40,013 nt of DNA from positions 1 to 40,013 of the forward strand of contig JAFMDS010000017.1 in the NCBI GenBank assembly GCA_017857175.1, in the 5' to 3' direction. Origin of the DNA: Candidatus Nanopelagicales bacterium (lineage in GTDB: Bacteria; Actinomycetota; Actinomycetes; S36-B12). Under the pieces are notes generated by a model. The model saw only the letters and a list, made by a program, of their open reading frames with translations, did no database searches and was not told the origin of the DNA. Positions 25,787 to 40,013 of this stretch are shown piece after piece. How positions within the stretch are numbered: the stretch's first letter is position 1; every line of letters begins with the position of its first letter. The position numbers were made by a program, and so were the translations under genes.

Positions 25787-26788
25787 TTAGAGAACAAATC
25801 CTTCAGGGAACGGATCATCTGGTGCAAGCATGTGAATGGATGTCCCGGTAATCCAGGCCCGACCCGTGATCTCTGGGACTATCGCGTCAATCCCGGCCAC
25901 GGTTGTGGTGTCTTTGACTCGCCCGAGAAAGTGAGTGCCAATGATGGATTCGTTGGTGAGCGTTGCACCGGGTGCAAGCATGCCTCGTGCGGTGAGTTGG
26001 GCAACTCGCGCGCTCGTTCCGGTGCCGCACGGTGAACGATCAAACCATCCAGGGTAGATAGCCATGGCGTGCCGCGAATGTGCAGCAGTGCTACCCGGTG
26101 CAACAAGTTGCACATGGTGAACATGATCAATTGCAGGATTCTCAGGGTGGACCGGTGGCTGCGACTCATTGATGGCATTCATAATCGCAAGGCCAGCAGC
26201 GAGGAGTTCGTCCTTGTGTTCCACACCGAATGGAATACCGATTTCCTCGAGCTCAACGATTGCATAGAAGTTGCCGCCGTAGGCCATGTCATAGCGCACG
26301 GATCCAATACCTGGGACTTCAACAACTGCATCGAGTTCAGTCACAAACGACGGTACGTTCTCGAGGGTCACCGACATTGCCCGTCCATTGGCAACAGCAA
26401 CTCGCGCGATGACCAGGCCCGCGGGGGTGTCGAGGCGAATCACTGTCTCAGGTTCGACAACAGGAACCATTCCAGTTTCCACCATGACTGTTGCTGTACC
26501 AATTGTTCCGTGACCGCACATGGGCAAACACCCTGAAACCTCAATATAAACAACACCCCAGTCACAATCTGGTCGCGTTGGTGGTTGCAGGATCGCGCCG
26601 CTCATGGCTCCATGGCCATGGGGCTCCAACATGAGCCATCGCCGCAAATGATCCGCCTCGTTCATCACATACTGGCGTCGTTCCTCCATGGTCGAACCTG
26701 GCAATGTTCCGACGCCACCAATAACCACGCGAGTGGGCATGCCTTCGGTGTGCGAGTCAACGCAGTGCCAAGCTCTGCTGGTTTCCAC
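25787..26788 (-). CDS. proline racemase family protein, probable 4-hydroxyproline 2-epimerase
   Basis: Both catalytic Cys present (CLPMCGHGTIG and DRSPCGTGTSA); genomic context with D-amino-acid dehydrogenase and DHDPS-like gene. Confidence 0.85.
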   Translation of the reverse strand: METSRAWHCVDSHTEGMPTRVVIGGVGTLPGSTMEERRQYVMNEADHLRRWLMLEPHGHGAMSGAILQPPTRPDCDWGVVYIEVSGCLPMCGHGTIGTATVMVETGMVPVVEPETVIRLDTPAGLVIARVAVANGRAMSVTLENVPSFVTELDAVVEVPGIGSVRYDMAYGGNFYAIVELEEIGIPFGVEHKDELLAAGLAIMNAINESQPPVHPENPAIDHVHHVQLVAPGSTAAHSRHAMAIYPGWFDRSPCGTGTSARVAQLTARGMLAPGATLTNESIIGTHFLGRVKDTTTVAGIDAIVPEITGRAWITGTSIHMLAPDDPFPEGFVL

Positions 26789-26795
26789 GGTTCCC

Positions 26796-28022
26796 CTAGC
26801 GGTTAGGTGTGAGCGCTAATTCTGCAGTGGTAATTGAACCCCCGCGAATATATCGGGCAACGAGATCGGCAGTTCCCATTGCACTCGACGTACCGATCAT
26901 TCCGTGGCCTGAAGCCACCACAACGTGCGGCATTCCCCGTAATGGACCGATAAATGGCGCACCGTCAGCGCTAGCGGGGCGCACTCCTGTCCAGGGCGCC
27001 AGCGACTCCAGAGATTGAGGTAAATTAGGCAGATCAACCACGGTCTTGGCTTGCGCATACATGTGTCTGATCTGTTGAGGATCAATGCTGCGGTCATTGG
27101 CACGCGTCAACTCAAAGCGGGAACTAATACGCAGCGAATTGCCCAATGGGTTTACCACAAATTTTTCATCGGCGAAAATCATTGGGTGCTGCACATTTGT
27201 CTCTAGATCTGGAACCGTGATTGAGTAGCCCTTCGCGGCAATGATGGGCAGAGACACCCCGAGAAGTCTGGTGAGGTTTGGGGTCCAGGCACCGGCGGCA
27301 ATCACAATTGTGGGTGCGCTCAAAGTTGTTGAGCCTAGGTGCACCCGAACACTGTCTGGTGAAGCGTCAATTCCGCTAACAGTGTGATTGGTAAGGAATG
27401 TGGCTTGATCATTTGTAACTTTGAGTGTTTCCCAGAGTAGTTGCGGATCAACACCAAAGTCCTCCCGCAATTCCACGACAGACAAATTGCGTGGAAGTAG
27501 AAGTGGTTCCGCCTCGCTCACAAGCTCTGGATCAATGAGCGCTGTGTCAATTCCAAGGTCGCGCATGTGATCTGCTTCGTGAGTTGCCCGGTCCTGGGAG
27601 CCATGACCCGTGAAAACTTCCCAGATTGGGTGCGAGGATGTGGGAATTCCTAGGGAGCGCACTCCGGAAGCGGAATTGCGCAGCAGGGACAACATTCCAG
27701 GGGTTAACGTCTCGGCATTACTCGATGTGCAGTGCGAAGTAAAACGTGCGAGCCATGTCAGACCAGAGAGTGGAAGCCGTGGGGACAGTGCAAAAGCGCC
27801 GTCTCGGGCAAGGAGTGATCTGATTCCTTGTCCGACCATGCCGGGTGCGGCGAAAGGAGTCGCATGGCTAACAACAATGTGACCGGCGTTTGCGCTGGAG
27901 GTTCCAAACTCGGGAGACCCAGAATCCACAACAAGTACAGACTGCCCTCGCAGTGCTGCGGCTACCGCAACTCCGATGATTCCACCACCGACGACTATGA
28001 CATCGGCATCAAAATTAGACAT
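26796..28022 (-). CDS. FAD-dependent D-amino-acid dehydrogenase/oxidase (DadA-like), probable D-hydroxyproline dehydrogenase
   Basis: DVIVVGGGIIGVAVAAAL; C-terminal GVRPASADGAPFIGPLRGMPHVVVASGHGMIGTSSAMGTADLVA. Confidence 0.85.
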   Translation of the reverse strand: MSNFDADVIVVGGGIIGVAVAAALRGQSVLVVDSGSPEFGTSSANAGHIVVSHATPFAAPGMVGQGIRSLLARDGAFALSPRLPLSGLTWLARFTSHCTSSNAETLTPGMLSLLRNSASGVRSLGIPTSSHPIWEVFTGHGSQDRATHEADHMRDLGIDTALIDPELVSEAEPLLLPRNLSVVELREDFGVDPQLLWETLKVTNDQATFLTNHTVSGIDASPDSVRVHLGSTTLSAPTIVIAAGAWTPNLTRLLGVSLPIIAAKGYSITVPDLETNVQHPMIFADEKFVVNPLGNSLRISSRFELTRANDRSIDPQQIRHMYAQAKTVVDLPNLPQSLESLAPWTGVRPASADGAPFIGPLRGMPHVVVASGHGMIGTSSAMGTADLVARYIRGGSITTAELALTPNR

Positions 28023-28055
28023 GTTCAGACATGGACTCGACGGAGATGAACTCGA

Positions 28056-28940
28056 CTAGGACTGTAATGTCGGGGCCCATTCGCCCGCCTGATCGAGTGC
28101 GTTTGAGAGGAGTTCGGCGGTTTCTGCATTGATGGCTGCAAGTGGTGACCGGGGCGCGCCAACAATGAGCCCTCGCAGTGCCATTCCCGCTTTAACCTTG
28201 GCGTTGTAATCGCCGGACTCTATGAACCTCAAAGTGGGAAGAATCTGTGAATACACGGTGGAACGTTTATCTGCATCCAACATTGCAACGTGAGCGGCAG
28301 GGAGCAGGTTTGCAATTCCGCCAATCCAACAATTGACGCCACTTTCTAGGAAAGAAATTGAGTCAACGTCAGCACCACAAATGATTATCAAGGCCGAACC
28401 AAAGTCCGCGGTGAGCCATCCAATGCGAGAAAGATCACCTGAGGCTTCTTTGATGCCGACCACCAAGTCAAGGGGAGTCACTTGTTCAAGAACCTCGTGA
28501 GAGAATGAAACACCGGTACGTGCTGGGTAGTCATAAAGAACAGTGGGGAGATCAACTGCTCCCACGACCGTCATGACATGTGATGCCAACTCATTCGGAG
28601 TGGGGAGGCAGTAGGAGGGTGCTGCCAACATCAGACCAGAAACTCCCGCACGTTTAGCCAGCACGGCTTGATCTATGGCCTCATGGGTGGACATCCCGCC
28701 GACTCCGGCAAGGACTGGGACGGCGCCATCGACTTCGGAGACAATCACCTGCATGACATGGCGGCGCTCATCAAAGCTCAGGGCGTAGCCCTCACCGGTG
28801 GTTCCCGCCGCAACCAAGCCATGGACGCCAGATGCCAGCATGACGTGGACAGCCTTGCGGAGTGTCTCGGTGTCAACTGCGCCCGTTGGGTCAAATGGTG
28901 TGACGAGGGGAACGTAGATTCCTTGTGGCGAAAGTGGCAT
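28056..28940 (-). CDS. DapA/DHDPS-family lyase, possible pyrroline-4-hydroxy-2-carboxylate deaminase
   Basis: GIYVPLVTPFDPTGAVD, AAGTTGEGYALSFDER, YDYPARTG, GIKEASGD; context suggests the deaminase role. Confidence 0.82.
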   Translation of the reverse strand: MPLSPQGIYVPLVTPFDPTGAVDTETLRKAVHVMLASGVHGLVAAGTTGEGYALSFDERRHVMQVIVSEVDGAVPVLAGVGGMSTHEAIDQAVLAKRAGVSGLMLAAPSYCLPTPNELASHVMTVVGAVDLPTVLYDYPARTGVSFSHEVLEQVTPLDLVVGIKEASGDLSRIGWLTADFGSALIIICGADVDSISFLESGVNCWIGGIANLLPAAHVAMLDADKRSTVYSQILPTLRFIESGDYNAKVKAGMALRGLIVGAPRSPLAAINAETAELLSNALDQAGEWAPTLQS

Positions 28941-28975
28941 CGCTCCAGCATAGTTCACGCTGAGGTCTTCGGAGG

Positions 28976-33347: not shown

Positions 33348-33464
33348 TCAACTCAATTCGCTGCCGACCCGGTGATGCACGCGAAAGAAGTTGTCAGGAT
33401 CGTATTTCCGCTTGGCGCGCAATACGGCCGACGCGGGAAATACCGTGAAAACACGGGAGTTGGG
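33348..33464 (-). pseudogene. C-terminal remnant of an FAD-linked oxidase with berberine-bridge (BBE) domain
   Basis: Minus strand reads PNSRVFTVFPASAVLRAKRKYDPDNFFRVHHRVGSELS*; KYDPDNxFR is the BBE C-terminal signature; an in-frame stop upstream and no FAD domain. Confidence 0.7.
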
Positions 33465-33804: not shown

Positions 33805-36711
33805 CTAGACCACTTGACGTTGAACGAGATCTGCGAAGTGACCGGGTTGTGAGACAAGTTCTTCAAAGGTTCCCTGTTGGGCGACTCGGCCGCCTGCGAT
33901 CACAATAATTCGGTCGGCGCCTTGGATGGTTGTGAGTCGGTGCGCGATCAGTATTCGGGTTAACCGCAGGTTTTCAAGGTGTTCAACAATGCTTCCTTGT
34001 GTGAGATTGTCCAGGGCGCTCGTGGCTTCATCGAGTATCAGCATGCGTGGGTTGCTCGCTAATGCCCGAGCGAGAAGAATCCGTTGGCGCTGACCGCCGG
34101 ACACGGTGCCACCACCATCAACGACGGGTGTGTCAAGGCCCATGCCCATTGCGCGCACTTCGTCTGCGACACACGCCCACTCGAGTGCCTGCCAGATCTC
34201 TGTGCTGGTGAGGCCGCGGCCCATGTCGACATTGTCGCGAATAGGGCCTGGGAGAAGTGTTGATGATTGCAGCACGCTGCCCACTTGTCGGCGAAAGGAA
34301 GGGAGATCGAGCACAGCCAGGTCCTGGCCATCAACTGTGACGACCCCGGACTCCGGTTCCTCCAGGCCCAAAAGTATTCGCATGAGAGTGGTTTTGCCGC
34401 AGCCAGAGGGGCCAACAATTGCAACTTGTTCACCCGGGCTAATACTGAAACTCACACCATCAAGGACCGGCCGTGACCCCGATTCGTAACGGAAAACAAT
34501 GTCGTTGAAAGTGACTCCACCACTGATCCGGCCTGGGTCAACACCATCATTGCCACCTTCGGGAATTGCCGCAAGCACGGGTTCCACCTTGCTGATCACG
34601 GCACGGCCATTGAACAGGGCACTTGCAGAGAATGCAGTGACAGCCAAGGTGGTTGTCGCGATGGCCACGGCTGCCTGTGCTGTGACGAAGTCACCGAATG
34701 TTGCACCAGTAGCACCGGTGACAGCCACGATCACCATGAGTCCGAGAACGGGCCAGGCACTGATGATCACCACTTGCACCATGGCAATCTGACGAACCGA
34801 AAGATCAGCACGAGTGAGTTTTGCCTGTAGAACCGCCCAACGCTTGAAAGCCCGCGACTCCGCACCTGACACCCGAAGTCGGTTGACCGCTTGCAGGGTT
34901 TCCAATAGGCGCCCCTGAGCTGCCGACTGAGCGGTAACTCGAGCGAGGGTCCGGCGGGCACTTTCGCGGGTGAGCCAGAGATTGACAAGCAATTGAATGG
35001 ACAGCAAGAGGATGGCGGCGATCAGCAGCGGTGTGCTGGTGGTGGCGATGGCTGCAAGCCCACCAAGGATCGCAACCGTGTCAAGGAGCCCGACAATAAT
35101 CGCATCGGGAACAGCGGTGGACGCCATCCCGACAGCTGAAGATTGCGTCATGCGTTCACCCATTGAGTATTTGTCATGCCACGTTGTGCGCAAGCGCATA
35201 ATTCGATCCCAAACGGCACCGCTGGTGAGTGCGGTGCCTCGGACGCGAATTCGGAGTAGCGCGACGCTTCGCACGTATTGCCAAGAAACGCTTACAAGCA
35301 AAAGGATGAACAGGGTGAGTAATGCCGCAAGAACAGAGCGGATATCAGTGTTCGTAACCGCACCGGCAACCTTGCCCAGAATGAACGGGGTGAAAAAGGC
35401 GAGCGCCGCGAGACCCGCCGTAAGGATCGCGATCAGCGAGAGGTCCCGACCAGAGCGCCTGAATCCAAGTCGAAAAAGTGAACTCAAACCGAGTGAGGTG
35501 GAGGGAAGTATAGGAACAAATTCCCATGCTCTTCCGGTCAGTCGCTCACGCCACTCCTGGCTCAGGGGCTGCTGAACTCCAGGAAGTTGTGGATCGGTCA
35601 CAGACCAACTGCGACCCTGCCAGGTGAGGGAGACGAAGTGGCCCTCGCGAGTCGCGGCGACGAGTGGTGGGCCGTCCTGGGTGAACCACAATGGGGCTAG
35701 GTCAATAGCGCGAGCGCGAGCACCGCACGCAGCACCCGCCGCCGTGAACGGGTCACGTCCGGTGAAGACATGGGCTTGTGCCCGATCACGGTCGGTTTCA
35801 TCGATTGCCAACCCCGACGACTCCACTGTGGTGAATGCTGCAGCCAGCGCTGCAGAACTCGTATCGCGCAGCACCCGAGGCCGAGCAATTGGTCCGACTA
35901 CCGCACCTGCGAGAAGGTCAATTCCCTGAAGGGTTTCGGCTTGCGCGAGTTCCTGGGCCACGACCCGTCGCTCGATCGAGGAGAGATTCTGATCCGCATC
36001 AATTGCCCGAACCGCCTCCAAGGTAAGGCGAGCCATGAGGTCAAGTGATTGTGACCATCCTTGTGAATCTACGGGTTCTGGCGCGTGTCCAATCTGGCAC
36101 CGAAGTCCACTGGTTAGCCATACGCCACGGGTAATAGGAACGGGAGCATCCAGCACACCCACCTGCGCATCACGCCACCCGCACATTGCGGCAGAGCCAG
36201 ATGTCACCTTGAGCCAACCCAGCACTGAATGATTCGATGGGGGGACAGGCACTGCAATTGGCACGACAGCTTCACCGGGTGCCAAACGAAGTGATCCGAG
36301 TCCTTCCGGTGCGACTACTTTGGTTGCCCAGCCTCCATTGAGGGCGGCCTGACTCAGTGCATAGATCCAGTGATCAAAGGGACGGATAGCGCGGGGCTGA
36401 TCGGTATCGGAGGTCGCATCAGGTTGTGGCACCGGTGCATCGAGTTCCTGCGCATCGAGCATTTCCGCGATCGTTGACTCCCGAAGGCTGGTGCCCTGTT
36501 GCGCTGTGACGAGTAGACGCGTCCGGGAATCGGTTATTGCGCACCCGGCCATGATGGCACCACTTCGCAGAGTGGTGATGGGAAGTCGACGTCCGTCGGC
36601 CAGTTCGGCAAACACGAGTAACTCACCGGTGAGTACTTCAAAGGTTTTTCCAGCGGCAGGATAGATGGCTGTGGCACCGGTGAATTCTTGGATTTGGGTT
36701 GGAGAGGTCAT
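33805..36711 (-). CDS. NHLP/NHPM-type bacteriocin export ABC transporter, ATP-binding/permease (second subunit)
   Basis: About 968 aa; long N-terminal non-peptidase region, TM segments, VGPSGCGKTTLM, VSGGQRQRILLARAL, LDEATSALD; start overlaps upstream stop by 4 nt. Confidence 0.85.
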   Translation of the reverse strand: MTSPTQIQEFTGATAIYPAAGKTFEVLTGELLVFAELADGRRLPITTLRSGAIMAGCAITDSRTRLLVTAQQGTSLRESTIAEMLDAQELDAPVPQPDATSDTDQPRAIRPFDHWIYALSQAALNGGWATKVVAPEGLGSLRLAPGEAVVPIAVPVPPSNHSVLGWLKVTSGSAAMCGWRDAQVGVLDAPVPITRGVWLTSGLRCQIGHAPEPVDSQGWSQSLDLMARLTLEAVRAIDADQNLSSIERRVVAQELAQAETLQGIDLLAGAVVGPIARPRVLRDTSSAALAAAFTTVESSGLAIDETDRDRAQAHVFTGRDPFTAAGAACGARARAIDLAPLWFTQDGPPLVAATREGHFVSLTWQGRSWSVTDPQLPGVQQPLSQEWRERLTGRAWEFVPILPSTSLGLSSLFRLGFRRSGRDLSLIAILTAGLAALAFFTPFILGKVAGAVTNTDIRSVLAALLTLFILLLVSVSWQYVRSVALLRIRVRGTALTSGAVWDRIMRLRTTWHDKYSMGERMTQSSAVGMASTAVPDAIIVGLLDTVAILGGLAAIATTSTPLLIAAILLLSIQLLVNLWLTRESARRTLARVTAQSAAQGRLLETLQAVNRLRVSGAESRAFKRWAVLQAKLTRADLSVRQIAMVQVVIISAWPVLGLMVIVAVTGATGATFGDFVTAQAAVAIATTTLAVTAFSASALFNGRAVISKVEPVLAAIPEGGNDGVDPGRISGGVTFNDIVFRYESGSRPVLDGVSFSISPGEQVAIVGPSGCGKTTLMRILLGLEEPESGVVTVDGQDLAVLDLPSFRRQVGSVLQSSTLLPGPIRDNVDMGRGLTSTEIWQALEWACVADEVRAMGMGLDTPVVDGGGTVSGGQRQRILLARALASNPRMLILDEATSALDNLTQGSIVEHLENLRLTRILIAHRLTTIQGADRIIVIAGGRVAQQGTFEELVSQPGHFADLVQRQVV

Positions 36712-38915
36712 CCGGCATTTACCAACCGGGAATAGGCTCCCTGCTCGGCCACCAGAGATTCATGTGTTCCGCGCTCGACGACAACTCCCCGCTCGAGCAC
36801 CACAATTTCATCGCTGTCACGAATAGTGGACAATCGATGCGCGATCACCAGGCAAGTGATTCCGCGCCGCCGAATAGCTTGATCAATGAGTGCCTCGGTT
36901 GGTGGGTCGAGTGCACTCGTTGCTTCATCGAGGACAAGAATTCTTGGATTGCGGGCCAATGCGCGCGCAATTTCCAGCCGTTGGCGCTGGCCACCGGACA
37001 GATCCGAACCACCCTCGGAGAGCACAGCTTCCAATCCACCCGGTCGCGCTGCGACATCTTTAGCTAACTGGGCGTCCTCGAGTGCCTTGTGAACATCGGT
37101 GTCACGAATATTTGGATCCCAAAGTGTGACGTTGTCTCTGATTGAACCTGAAAAAATGGTGACATCTTGGTCAACGAGCGCGATTCCATCGGTCAGCACC
37201 ACGGGTGCATGTTTGTGCCGTGGGAGTCCGTCCACGAGGATCTCGCCTCCCCATGGTTGATATAAGCCGGTGACCAGTCGAGAGATGGTCGACTTTCCGC
37301 AGCCGGATGGACCTACCAGAGCAACGCGTCCACCCGGTTGAAGGTGCAGATCCAGATCGGTGAGGATCGGCGGAGCGAGACGGCTGTAGCCGAAGGTGAC
37401 ATTGCTGGCACGAATTTCCCCGATCAGAGCACCAGGTGCATCAACTTCAGTATTTGACTGGCGATCGTTGTCAACGTCAGACGGTTCACCGTCATCAAGG
37501 GGCGCTTGCAGGATGTCATCAATTTGATCAAGTGTTGGCCGCAGGAGTTGAACTTGTCCCATAAGCCCGGTGAGTTGGGCGAGCGGGCCAATCATGACAC
37601 CGGCGATTGCTAACACTGCAAGAAGTGATCCTGGTTCGATCTGGCCATTAACAATCTGTAACAGGGCCATCCCGGTAATTGCGATGGTGGCAAAGCCGGT
37701 GAGAAATGTTGGAATTGCGTCGACAACGAGCATTCGTAAATTGACGCGCTGCTCTGATTCCACTTGCCTGTTGATCGCGGCAACACCTCGCGCAATGATC
37801 GCATCTTCTGAGCCAGCTGCCTTAACGGATTCAATCTGTGACAATGCTGATGCCATGGTGGAGCCAGCCTCAATCGTGTCTACCAGAACTTTCGCAGCTT
37901 CGTCCTTAGCCTTGAGGAGGGAGATGTGAAGTGCAATGCCGGTAAGAATGACAATGACAATGGCTGTGAGACCAATCAGTGGATCAATAATGACTAAAGC
38001 AATCGCTGCGACGATACCCGTAATCGCTGCGACACCAACATTTAAAGCGAGTGTCGAGACACTCACACTGAGGGCATCAATGATCAGAGCGCGTTGAGCA
38101 ATGGATGCTGCACCGCGTTGGGCGTGAAATGCTGCGGGGAGTCTGAGTAATCGGTCCACAACACTCGCGGTCATGCGCACGGTGATTCGCGTGGAAAGTC
38201 GAATACTCAAAATACCTTGGATTATGTACAACACAGTTTGCACCCCAAGGGCAACGATCAATCCCGTGACTGTGGCCGCGGCTGCCAGCCCAGCGAGATT
38301 GTTCAAGCCATTACCAAACAGGGTCATGAGCGCTGGCGTCAGCAGGGTTGGAACCAAGAGAAGGAGCCCAACAATTGCTGCGGCCAACATGGCGGAACCG
38401 ACTGTGCCGGCTGAGGCGAAAAGTCGACCTAGAACGCCAGCACGTTTCCCGCCCGGCTCGAATTCATCACCCGGCTGTAGCGAAAGAACAACCCCGGTGA
38501 AGGAAGTATCGAATTCTTCGTCGGGACACTTGCGGGGGCCGCCGCCGGGGTCATTGAGATACCAACCTCCCGGGTACCAACCTTCCACCACTAGGTAGTG
38601 GTAGAACTTCCAGTGGATCACTAAAGGAAAGGGGAGGTTCTTGAGTTCTTCGGGTTCTCGTTTTACCGCCCGGGTTTTCAGGCCGTAATTGCGGGCCGCC
38701 ACCAAAATATTTCTAGCGGTAGCACCATCGCGGGAGACACCGCATGCTGCGCGCAATTCATCGAGGTCCACAAATCTGCCGTTTCGGGCTAAGACCATGC
38801 CCAAGCTTGCGGCTCCGCACTCAGTTGCTTCCATCTGCAGGATTGAGGGCACCTTGACGCGGTGGCGCGAGCGGGGTTTTTGTTCCGCTGTTGCGGGTGC
38901 AATCGTGGTTGACAT
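36708..38915 (-). CDS. NHLP/NHPM-type bacteriocin export ABC transporter with C39 peptidase domain
   Basis: LQMEATECGAASLGMVLARNG (catalytic Cys), HWKFYHYLVVEGW (His), LNDPGGGPR (Asp); VGPSGCGKST, LSGGQRQRLEIARAL. Confidence 0.93.
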   Translation of the reverse strand: MSTTIAPATAEQKPRSRHRVKVPSILQMEATECGAASLGMVLARNGRFVDLDELRAACGVSRDGATARNILVAARNYGLKTRAVKREPEELKNLPFPLVIHWKFYHYLVVEGWYPGGWYLNDPGGGPRKCPDEEFDTSFTGVVLSLQPGDEFEPGGKRAGVLGRLFASAGTVGSAMLAAAIVGLLLLVPTLLTPALMTLFGNGLNNLAGLAAAATVTGLIVALGVQTVLYIIQGILSIRLSTRITVRMTASVVDRLLRLPAAFHAQRGAASIAQRALIIDALSVSVSTLALNVGVAAITGIVAAIALVIIDPLIGLTAIVIVILTGIALHISLLKAKDEAAKVLVDTIEAGSTMASALSQIESVKAAGSEDAIIARGVAAINRQVESEQRVNLRMLVVDAIPTFLTGFATIAITGMALLQIVNGQIEPGSLLAVLAIAGVMIGPLAQLTGLMGQVQLLRPTLDQIDDILQAPLDDGEPSDVDNDRQSNTEVDAPGALIGEIRASNVTFGYSRLAPPILTDLDLHLQPGGRVALVGPSGCGKSTISRLVTGLYQPWGGEILVDGLPRHKHAPVVLTDGIALVDQDVTIFSGSIRDNVTLWDPNIRDTDVHKALEDAQLAKDVAARPGGLEAVLSEGGSDLSGGQRQRLEIARALARNPRILVLDEATSALDPPTEALIDQAIRRRGITCLVIAHRLSTIRDSDEIVVLERGVVVERGTHESLVAEQGAYSRLVNAG

Positions 38916-38922
38916 GTCAGGG

Positions 38923-39753
38923 TTAACCGACGTTGACGAGTTCGCGCAGGACTGTGGATTCAGACTCAATGATCTCTACGGTGACTTGCGCCCCGGGAGT
39001 TATCATTTCGTCGATTGCAATGGAGACATATATATAGGTGTCTGCAGGGTTCAGAGTCAGACTCGTGAGGGCGGCTGCTCGATCAGAGGGTAATGGTGTT
39101 TCAGATACAGCCGACACGGTGCCACTCACCGCGAAGTTAGCACCAAGAACCTGTGCACTCTGGCCAACCTGCACTCCACTTGATGCACCTTGTGGCACGG
39201 GAACAAAGACGTGAGTATCGCTTCCTGTCGGCAGGATCGTGAGCACCGCCGCTCCACCGGAAAGCACTTGCCCTTGGGAAGCAAGGATTTGCCAGATGGT
39301 TCCGTCGGCTGGTGCCGTGAGGGTAACTGTCGCGCCGTCGGCGCCAGTTCCTTCCGCGAGGAGTGTTCCTTGGCGCACTTCAATTCCTTCAGTGACTTCC
39401 ATCCTGTTGAGAACGAATTCATCGATGGTCCCCACCGTCACCACGCCCGACTCGGCCACAGCACGACCCGTTGTCGTCACAGAGGTGACCTGGGGCGTGC
39501 CAGCCGCATAAATAATTGCTGCGAACAATACGCCTGCAACACCCGCAATTGCTATCCAGATTTTCGGTGAGGTGATGGGAAGTAGGTTGTCAATCTGTTT
39601 GGGAATGTCTATCTGAGCGAGAGCCTTGGCGCGAAATAGGTGCGATGAAGGTGTTGATGCGTCTGTGGGTTTTTCCTCAACCACCTCGAAAATAGCATCG
39701 AGAACATCGGATCGTCGTCGACCACTCTCTGGTGGGGATCCGGGAGTCTCCAT
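38923..39753 (-). CDS. HlyD-like secretion adaptor of bacteriocin export system
   Basis: One TM helix (IWIAIAGVAGVLFAAIIYAAG), biotinyl-lipoyl-like GTLLAEGTGADGATVTLTAPADGTIWQILASQGQVLSGGAAVLTI; operon with C39-ABC. Confidence 0.83.
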   Translation of the reverse strand: METPGSPPESGRRRSDVLDAIFEVVEEKPTDASTPSSHLFRAKALAQIDIPKQIDNLLPITSPKIWIAIAGVAGVLFAAIIYAAGTPQVTSVTTTGRAVAESGVVTVGTIDEFVLNRMEVTEGIEVRQGTLLAEGTGADGATVTLTAPADGTIWQILASQGQVLSGGAAVLTILPTGSDTHVFVPVPQGASSGVQVGQSAQVLGANFAVSGTVSAVSETPLPSDRAAALTSLTLNPADTYIYVSIAIDEMITPGAQVTVEIIESESTVLRELVNVG

Positions 39754-39758
39754 GAGCC

Positions 39759-39869
39759 TTAGCCTACTTTCAGCGGTTTGTGGTTCTTGTGAGGTAGAGG
39801 AGATTGCCCTAGTGCGGCCTGCGGGTCGAGCCCCAACTTTCCCAGGGTTGTGATCAGTTCCGCCGACAA
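39759..39869 (-). CDS. candidate 36-aa ORF (TTG start) ending 5 nt upstream of the hlyD-like ATG
   Basis: Reads LSAELITTLGKLGLDPQAALGQSPLPHKNHKPLKVG*; codon-like composition; weak start. Confidence 0.3.
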   Translation of the reverse strand: MSAELITTLGKLGLDPQAALGQSPLPHKNHKPLKVG

Positions 39870-39882
39870 CTCCGATCAGTTC

Positions 39883-39933
39883 TTAGCCGGTGACGTCGGG
39901 TACGTCCTTTGCCTCCATCTCTTCAGGGTTCAT
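39883..39933 (-). CDS. candidate 16-aa acidic ORF MNPEEMEAKDVPDVTG, leaderless
   Basis: ATG 39933 preceded at exactly 6 nt by TAGAGT, the same geometry as several annotated genes here. Confidence 0.4.
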   Translation of the reverse strand: MNPEEMEAKDVPDVTG

Positions 39934-39945
39934 GACATTACTCTA
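39934..39945 (-). promoter_or_regulatory. predicted leaderless promoter -10 (TAGAGT-N6-ATG) of the export operon
   Basis: TAGAGT AATGTC ATG on the minus strand. Confidence 0.5.
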
Positions 39946-40013
39946 ACGACATCACGAATGAACCTGCCGTGAAAAGACTCGGTGGTGAAGGTGGGAAGTC
40001 GATCTCGCGGGAG

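What the first reader, a model, noticed from the sequence alone, without database searches (positions are those of the whole stretch)
39759..39945. Unusual leader region of the export operon: leaderless 16-codon ORF, in-frame stop, GG-like motif and overlapping 36-codon ORF
On the minus strand, TAGAGT-N6-ATG starts MNPEEMEAKDVPDVTG (net about -4), then TAA. The same frame continues open as ELIGVVGGTDHNPGKVGARPAGRT... directly into the hlyD-like start; ELxxVVGG resembles a double-glycine C39 leader end. The +1 frame after a TGA reads (TTG)LSAELITTLGKLGLDPQAALGQSPLPHKNHKPLKVG*, ending 5 nt before the hlyD-like ATG. An acidic leader-like start followed by a GG motif immediately upstream of a C39 exporter is what a RiPP precursor looks like, but it is broken by a stop. 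Options: (a) decayed precursor, (b) recoding or assembly error, (c) a regulatory uORF plus a separate small peptide, (d) coincidence.
Basis: partly seen in the sequence, partly recalled or inferred. Interest (0 to 1): 0.72.

Follow-up and report, generated by a model that had tools for sequence, protein, structure and literature searches.

The report
Dead copy of an exported-peptide gene
In front of a peptide-export operon in an aquatic actinobacterium sits a broken duplicate of a small peptide-precursor gene, recognisable because a related genome still carries an intact copy next to an equally broken one; it is a gene relic, not a new kind of leader.

Summary
In the genome of an aquatic Candidatus Nanopelagicales-type actinobacterium, a 16-codon ORF with an in-frame TAA, an ELIGVVGG continuation and an overlapping 36-codon ORF lie upstream of an hlyD / C39-ABC / ABC operon. 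Its explanation is in another genus of the same family (G083). There an MftF-family glycosyltransferase gene is followed by an intact precursor, MNPEEMDAKDVPDVTDEELDSVVGG|GDFGTGGGGGC, and then by a tandem copy, MDPEEMEAKDVPDVTG*ELIGVVGGTDYKP*, with the same TAA as the window. The window stretch is about 93% identical to that second copy. The window contig ends exactly at the left edge of this repeat unit, and so does its closest relative's, which explains why the locus sits at a contig end. The 36-codon ORF is most likely a by-product: a 1-nt indel breaks its frame in G083, its stop codon borrows the hlyD promoter, and its wobble bias is weak (P about 0.09). Four other exporter-bearing relatives (76-85% HlyD identity) lack the region entirely. 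An intact GG-type precursor candidate lies elsewhere in the same genome (C41). Ordinary; low to moderate interest.

The parts
39930..40013 (-). 3' tail of an MftF-family glycosyltransferase frame (LPRDRLPTFTTESFHGRFIRDVVRVMS*), carried as the left edge of the duplicated unit; its stop overlaps the next ATG (ATGA)
   Evidence: 88% DNA match over 51 nt to the end of the G007:C5 glycosyltransferase gene; left edge of the tandem unit in G083; the G083 glycosyltransferase passes TIGR03965
39940..39945 (-). possible -10 element (TAGAGT, 6 nt before ATG) for a leaderless transcript
   Evidence: direct sequence; TAAAGT at the same place in the G083 second copy; function inferred
39883..39933 (-). 5' part of a disabled GG-leader precursor: MNPEEMEAKDVPDVTG then TAA (16-codon ORF)
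   Evidence: aligned to intact G083 copy 1 MNPEEMDAKDVPDVTDEELDSVVGG; the same TAA in G012 and in G083 copy 2
39859..39882 (-). remnant of the leader end, ELIGVVGG (double-glycine site), now behind the stop
   Evidence: profile hit E = 5.7e-5 with one TAA; agrees with the published NHLP/Nif11 cleavage logo (PMC2887384)
39767..39858 (-). former core region; no frame conserved across the three genomes
   Evidence: three-way alignment with a 1-nt indel in G083; substitution tests
39759..39869 (-). 36-codon ORF (TTG start) overlapping the relic; most likely fortuitous
   Evidence: open in window and G012; frame broken and stop absent in G083; P = 0.09 for excess synonymous changes
39761..39766 (-). 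possible hlyD -10 (TAGGCT), 7 nt before the start codon
   Evidence: TANNNT-N7-start in window, G012, G011, G006, G003 and L105; function inferred
38923..39753 (-). HlyD-like membrane-fusion protein
   Evidence: Pfam HlyD_3 48.5 bits; TIGR03794 below its cut-off
36708..38969 (-). C39 peptidase / permease / ATPase exporter (NHLM_micro_ABC1-like)
   Evidence: TIGR03796 768 bits, full length, cut-off 853; Pfam Peptidase_C39 112 bits
33805..36711 (-). second permease / ATPase (NHLM_micro_ABC2-like)
   Evidence: TIGR03797 529 bits, cut-off 709

Best explanation
The region is a pseudogene. A cassette made of the end of an MftF-family glycosyltransferase gene plus a short double-glycine-leader peptide precursor was tandemly duplicated, and the second copy lost function (duplication and relationship shown by homology; loss of function inferred). 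In that copy the leader has a TAA at position -9 from the GG site, its near-invariant acidic residue before the stop is now Gly, and the core frame is lost. A ribosome starting at the ATG makes a 16-residue peptide without the GG site, so the C39 peptidase cannot recognise or export it (inferred from published C39 specificity). In this lineage the broken copy lies directly against the hlyD promoter, by rearrangement or transfer (inferred). hlyD is read from its own promoter (inferred). The exporter is likely fed by other GG or Nif11-type precursors elsewhere in the genome, such as C41 (inferred).
For: Intact and broken copies lie in tandem in G083:C367, another genus, with the same TAA. The window stretch 39769-40013 matches that second copy at 93%. 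The window and G012 contigs both start exactly at the unit's left edge, as expected for a repeat. A Lys or Glu codon stands at the stop position in intact homologues (AAA in G007:C74, GAA in G083 copy 1). The near-invariant Asp of the leader is Gly here. Downstream frames are not conserved: the GG frame stops after TDYKP and the 36-codon frame is shifted in G083. Relatives G011, G006, G003 and L105 keep the exporter but have unrelated DNA upstream. An intact GG-type precursor candidate is on G000:C41. C39 recognition needs about the last 13 leader residues, with hydrophobic -4, -7 and -12 (PMC6363468); the stop falls inside that stretch.
Against: The same TAA persists in two genera, and the first 148 nt are identical between window and G012 while the rest differs by about 13%, so something keeps or spreads this version. 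The cassette may simply have moved recently: the neighbouring glycosyltransferase DNA is 96.5% identical across genera. Eight of 11 changes after GG fall at wobble positions of the 36-codon frame (P = 0.009 before allowing for three frames). The upstream DNA of the window genome is unassembled, so an intact first copy there is inferred, not seen.
Confidence: 0.85

Rival explanations
1. The 36-codon ORF encodes a separate small exported or regulatory peptide, translated from TTG just before hlyD.
For: Open in window and G012; 8 of 11 differences after GG are at its wobble position.
Against: In G083 a 1-nt indel breaks the frame and the stop is absent. No usable ribosome-binding spacing before TTG. 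The stop codon lies in the conserved TANNNT-N7 element before hlyD. The simulation gives only P = 0.09 for excess synonymous changes. No family match.
Confidence: 0.06
2. The 16-codon ORF is a functional leader-peptide attenuator or uORF controlling the export operon.
For: Leaderless-type start; the stop is shared by three genomes.
Against: It is a truncated copy of a coding leader. It is no more conserved than its flank against G083 (2 differences in 51 nt against 3 in 80; alignment). It is absent in other exporter-bearing relatives. hlyD has its own conserved -10-like element. No Rfam family reaches its gathering score in this stretch.
Confidence: 0.04
3. The gene is recoded: stop readthrough and then a frameshift at GG give a full precursor.
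For: The leader lies in one frame and the possibly constrained 36-mer in another. The sibling copy on G000:C69 also changes frame exactly at a G run after GG.
Against: It would need two separate recoding events. The downstream frame is disrupted in G083. No recoding signal or conserved structure was found.
Confidence: 0.02
4. Assembly or sequencing error at the contig end.
For: The region is 68 nt from a contig edge that coincides with the repeat boundary and with the G012 contig edge.
Against: The same TAA occurs in G083, a different genus, inside a 12.5 kb contig. The leader also carries further non-consensus changes.
Confidence: 0.03

Closest known systems
NHLP/Nif11 (N11P) precursor and export system of Haft, Basu and Mitchell 2010 (TIGR03793, 03798, 03794, 03796, 03797)
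   Same: Three-gene exporter of HlyD-like, C39-ABC and ABC proteins; double-glycine leaders with acidic, Leu and Val positions; many precursors per genome with variable cores (PMC2887384).
   Different: The exporter scores below the curated cut-offs. This precursor's leader is short (25 aa), with no nitrile-hydratase or Nif11 domain. The window copy is broken.
Double-glycine bacteriocin leader (TIGR01847-type) and C39 / PCAT substrates such as LahA and ProcA
   Same: E-L-x-x-V-x-G-G leader end with hydrophobic -4, -7 and -12 (PMC6363468).
   Different: The stop codon lies at -9, so the recognised segment is not translated from the leader start.
Mycofactocin glycosyltransferase MftF (TIGR03965)
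   Same: The gene upstream of the cassette in G083 passes the MftF cut-off (289.8 against 280).
   Different: In G083 it neighbours GG-type precursors and a second NHLM-like exporter; no MftC or MftD was seen on that contig. In the window only its 3' tail is present.

Membership tests
Double-glycine RiPP / bacteriocin precursor (intact gene) | One open reading frame from start codon through the GG site into a core | tested here: not met
   TAA at 39883-39885 before ELIGVVGG
Double-glycine RiPP / bacteriocin precursor (ancestry) | Homology to intact GG-leader precursors | tested here: met
   E = 1.4e-8 from the intact G083 precursor; E = 5.7e-5 from a leader profile
Double-glycine RiPP / bacteriocin precursor (activity) | Peptide made, cleaved after GG and exported | not testable with these tools
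   needs peptidomics or a cleavage assay
NHLP (TIGR03793) or Nif11 (TIGR03798) precursor | Leader domain match at the curated cut-off | tested here: not met
   the intact homologue from G083 matches neither model
NHLM export system | ABC1 with C39 peptidase domain | tested here: met
   Pfam PF03412 111.9 bits
NHLM export system | TIGR03796, TIGR03797 and TIGR03794 at curated cut-offs | tested here: not met
   768 of 853, 529 of 709 and 32 of 156 bits; best or near-best models but below cut-off
NHLM export system | Gene order hlyD - ABC1 - ABC2 | tested here: met
   33805-39753, minus strand
Mycofactocin system | MftC radical SAM and MftD next to MftF | tested here: not met
   none seen among the ORFs listed in G083:C367; the window carries only a tail of the glycosyltransferase frame

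The most novel reading that the evidence does not exclude
The stop-containing copy is kept on purpose. The truncated leader and the shifted downstream frame would form a recoded or regulatory element of the export operon, spread between genera as a unit with an MftF-type glycosyltransferase.
Probability: 0.06. Interest if true: 0.7.

Novelty: new member of a known kind. Interest (0 to 1): 0.3.

Why it matters
It settles an odd-looking leader as a relic of a duplicated precursor gene and shows that short GG-precursor cassettes are duplicated, lost and exchanged between genera of aquatic actinobacteria. It also points to a less expected association: MftF-family glycosyltransferases beside GG-leader precursors and NHLM-like exporters, which may define glycosylated exported peptides.

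Tried and rejected
Rfam covariance search of the region: nothing near a gathering score. tRNA search at loci sharing short matches with the 36-mer region: no shared tRNA context. Viral-contig scan for the leader DNA: no match. The 36-mer hit in G003:C119 (E = 0.005 in one of 86 genomes) falls outside any evident gene and is not significant over the whole search. Short matches in G105, G104 and G131 (20-22 nt) were treated as chance; only the G131 one was read. Literature search for Nanopelagicales with bacteriocin: none held. Codon-position test for either frame: inconclusive. My attempt to list differences against G083 copy 2 was off by one base and is disregarded; the alignment is used instead.

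Full report
What was checked. The window is a complete 40,013-nt contig (G000:C45) of a 2.0 Mb, 98% complete genome. Named relatives of its HlyD are Candidatus Nanopelagicales and other aquatic actinobacterial MAGs. The operon downstream is hlyD (38923-39753), a C39-peptidase ABC exporter (36708-38969) and a second ABC protein (33805-36711). The two ABC proteins match the NHLM export models over nearly the full length of the models, but score below the curated cut-offs; the C39 domain itself is clear.

Relatives. G012, with a 95% identical C39-ABC protein, has the same region including the TAA, and its contig begins at exactly the same base as the window's end. The first 148 nt are identical while the remainder up to the end of the compared stretch differs by about 13%. 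Because the two contigs share their end point, G012 is not fully independent evidence. Four other relatives with 76-85% identical HlyD (G011, G006, G003, L105) have unrelated DNA before hlyD. The region is therefore not a conserved part of the export operon.

The key locus. In G083, a different genus of the same family, contig C367 carries an MftF-family glycosyltransferase (60-1520; TIGR03965 289.8 bits, cut-off 280). It is followed by an intact 36-residue precursor at 1553-1663, MNPEEMDAKDVPDVTDEELDSVVGG|GDFGTGGGGGC, and then by a second copy of the unit starting at about 1672, MDPEEMEAKDVPDVTG*ELIGVVGGTDYKP*. The second copy carries the same TAA. Window 39769-40013 matches it at 93%. The unit's left boundary, CTCCCGCGAG, is the first base of the window contig read on the minus strand. 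A contig that ends exactly at a repeat boundary is what an assembler leaves when the unit is present more than once, so a further copy upstream is likely but not seen. The G083 contig's own exporter is only 49-69% identical to those of the window's genus, whereas its glycosyltransferase block is 96.5% identical in DNA to that of G007. The cassette has thus probably moved between genera recently.

Why it is a relic. Compared with intact leaders, the window copy has lost the near-invariant Asp (now Gly), has a stop where others have Glu or Lys, and has Ile-Gly in place of Asp-Ser. The published C39 recognition segment is the last 13 leader residues, with hydrophobic -4, -7 and -12 (PMC6363468); the stop is at -9. 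Behind GG, the frame stops after TDYKP in G083, and the 36-codon frame is shifted there by one base and lacks the same stop. Against G012, the 36-codon frame shows 8 of 11 changes at wobble positions after GG (P = 0.009 uncorrected), but the count of synonymous codons is not convincing (6 of 12, P = 0.09), and the GG frame shows no excess (P = 0.62). The 36-codon stop overlaps TAGGCT, one of the TANNNT elements that lie 7 nt before the hlyD start in six genomes. I read these as hlyD's own -10 for a leaderless transcript (inference).

Where the real substrates may be. A profile of leaders from other loci finds several candidates in the genus. In the window's own genome, C41 encodes an intact GG-type peptide ending ...DLTDTDLEGVAGG|TGVGGGCEPSTQNANENPISCG. 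C69 holds a second relative of the G083 precursor, in which an extra G in a G6 run puts the GDFGTGGGGGC core out of frame. G012 has a 99-residue GG-type precursor on C19, and G007 has a Nif11-type precursor directly before its hlyD.

Verdict. It is a decayed tandem duplicate of a GG-leader precursor cassette that now abuts the exporter operon. Shown: homology, the shared stop, the tandem arrangement in G083, and absence in other exporter-bearing relatives. Inferred: loss of function, promoter assignment, and the missing upstream copy. Interest 0.3.

Noticed in passing
G000:C69:1464-1576 (L167): Sibling precursor MNIEPKDEIDADDVTDEDLDSVVGG whose conserved core GDFGTGGGGGC is one base out of frame after a G6 run, with only silent differences in the core against G083; frameshift, phase variation, +1 recoding at GGG-GGG-TGA, or error.
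   Followed up: partly
L161 (G083:C367:60-1520), L047 (G007:C5), L116 (G003:C8:5825-7264): MftF-family glycosyltransferases next to small GG-motif peptides and, in G083 and G003, an NHLM-like exporter, without MftC/MftD seen nearby; two upstream peptides (...DEDLGGVSGGGWPY in G007, ...DEDLDQVTGGWQRI in G003) have GG followed by a tiny core with an aromatic residue. Possible glycosylated RiPP type.
   Followed up: partly
L161 1501-1518, 2043-2060, 2357-2374, 2858-2875; L047; window 33442-33457: Dispersed hairpin CCACCGTGNTTTCACGGT around glycosyltransferase and precursor cassettes; one near-match lies downstream of the window's export operon (0.04 expected by chance).
   Followed up: partly
L161 1534-1998 compared with L047 1561: Both precursor copies are absent as one block of about 465 nt in G007, whose flanking DNA is 96.5% identical; the cassette is gained or lost as a unit.
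   Followed up: partly
L114 (G012:C9) and L112 (G000:C18:2024-2295): G012 has what looks like a canonical mycofactocin cluster (MftC, MftD, MftE, MftF by inspection); the window's own genome has only frame-broken MftF fragments on C18.
   Followed up: partly
L113 (G000:C16): A second NHLM-like exporter (HlyD, C39-ABC, ABC) followed by a periplasmic solute-binding-like protein, also present in several relatives.
   Followed up: no
window 25787-28958: Cluster that looks like hydroxyproline / D-amino-acid catabolism: proline-racemase-like, FAD oxidoreductase, DapA-like; read by eye only.
   Followed up: no
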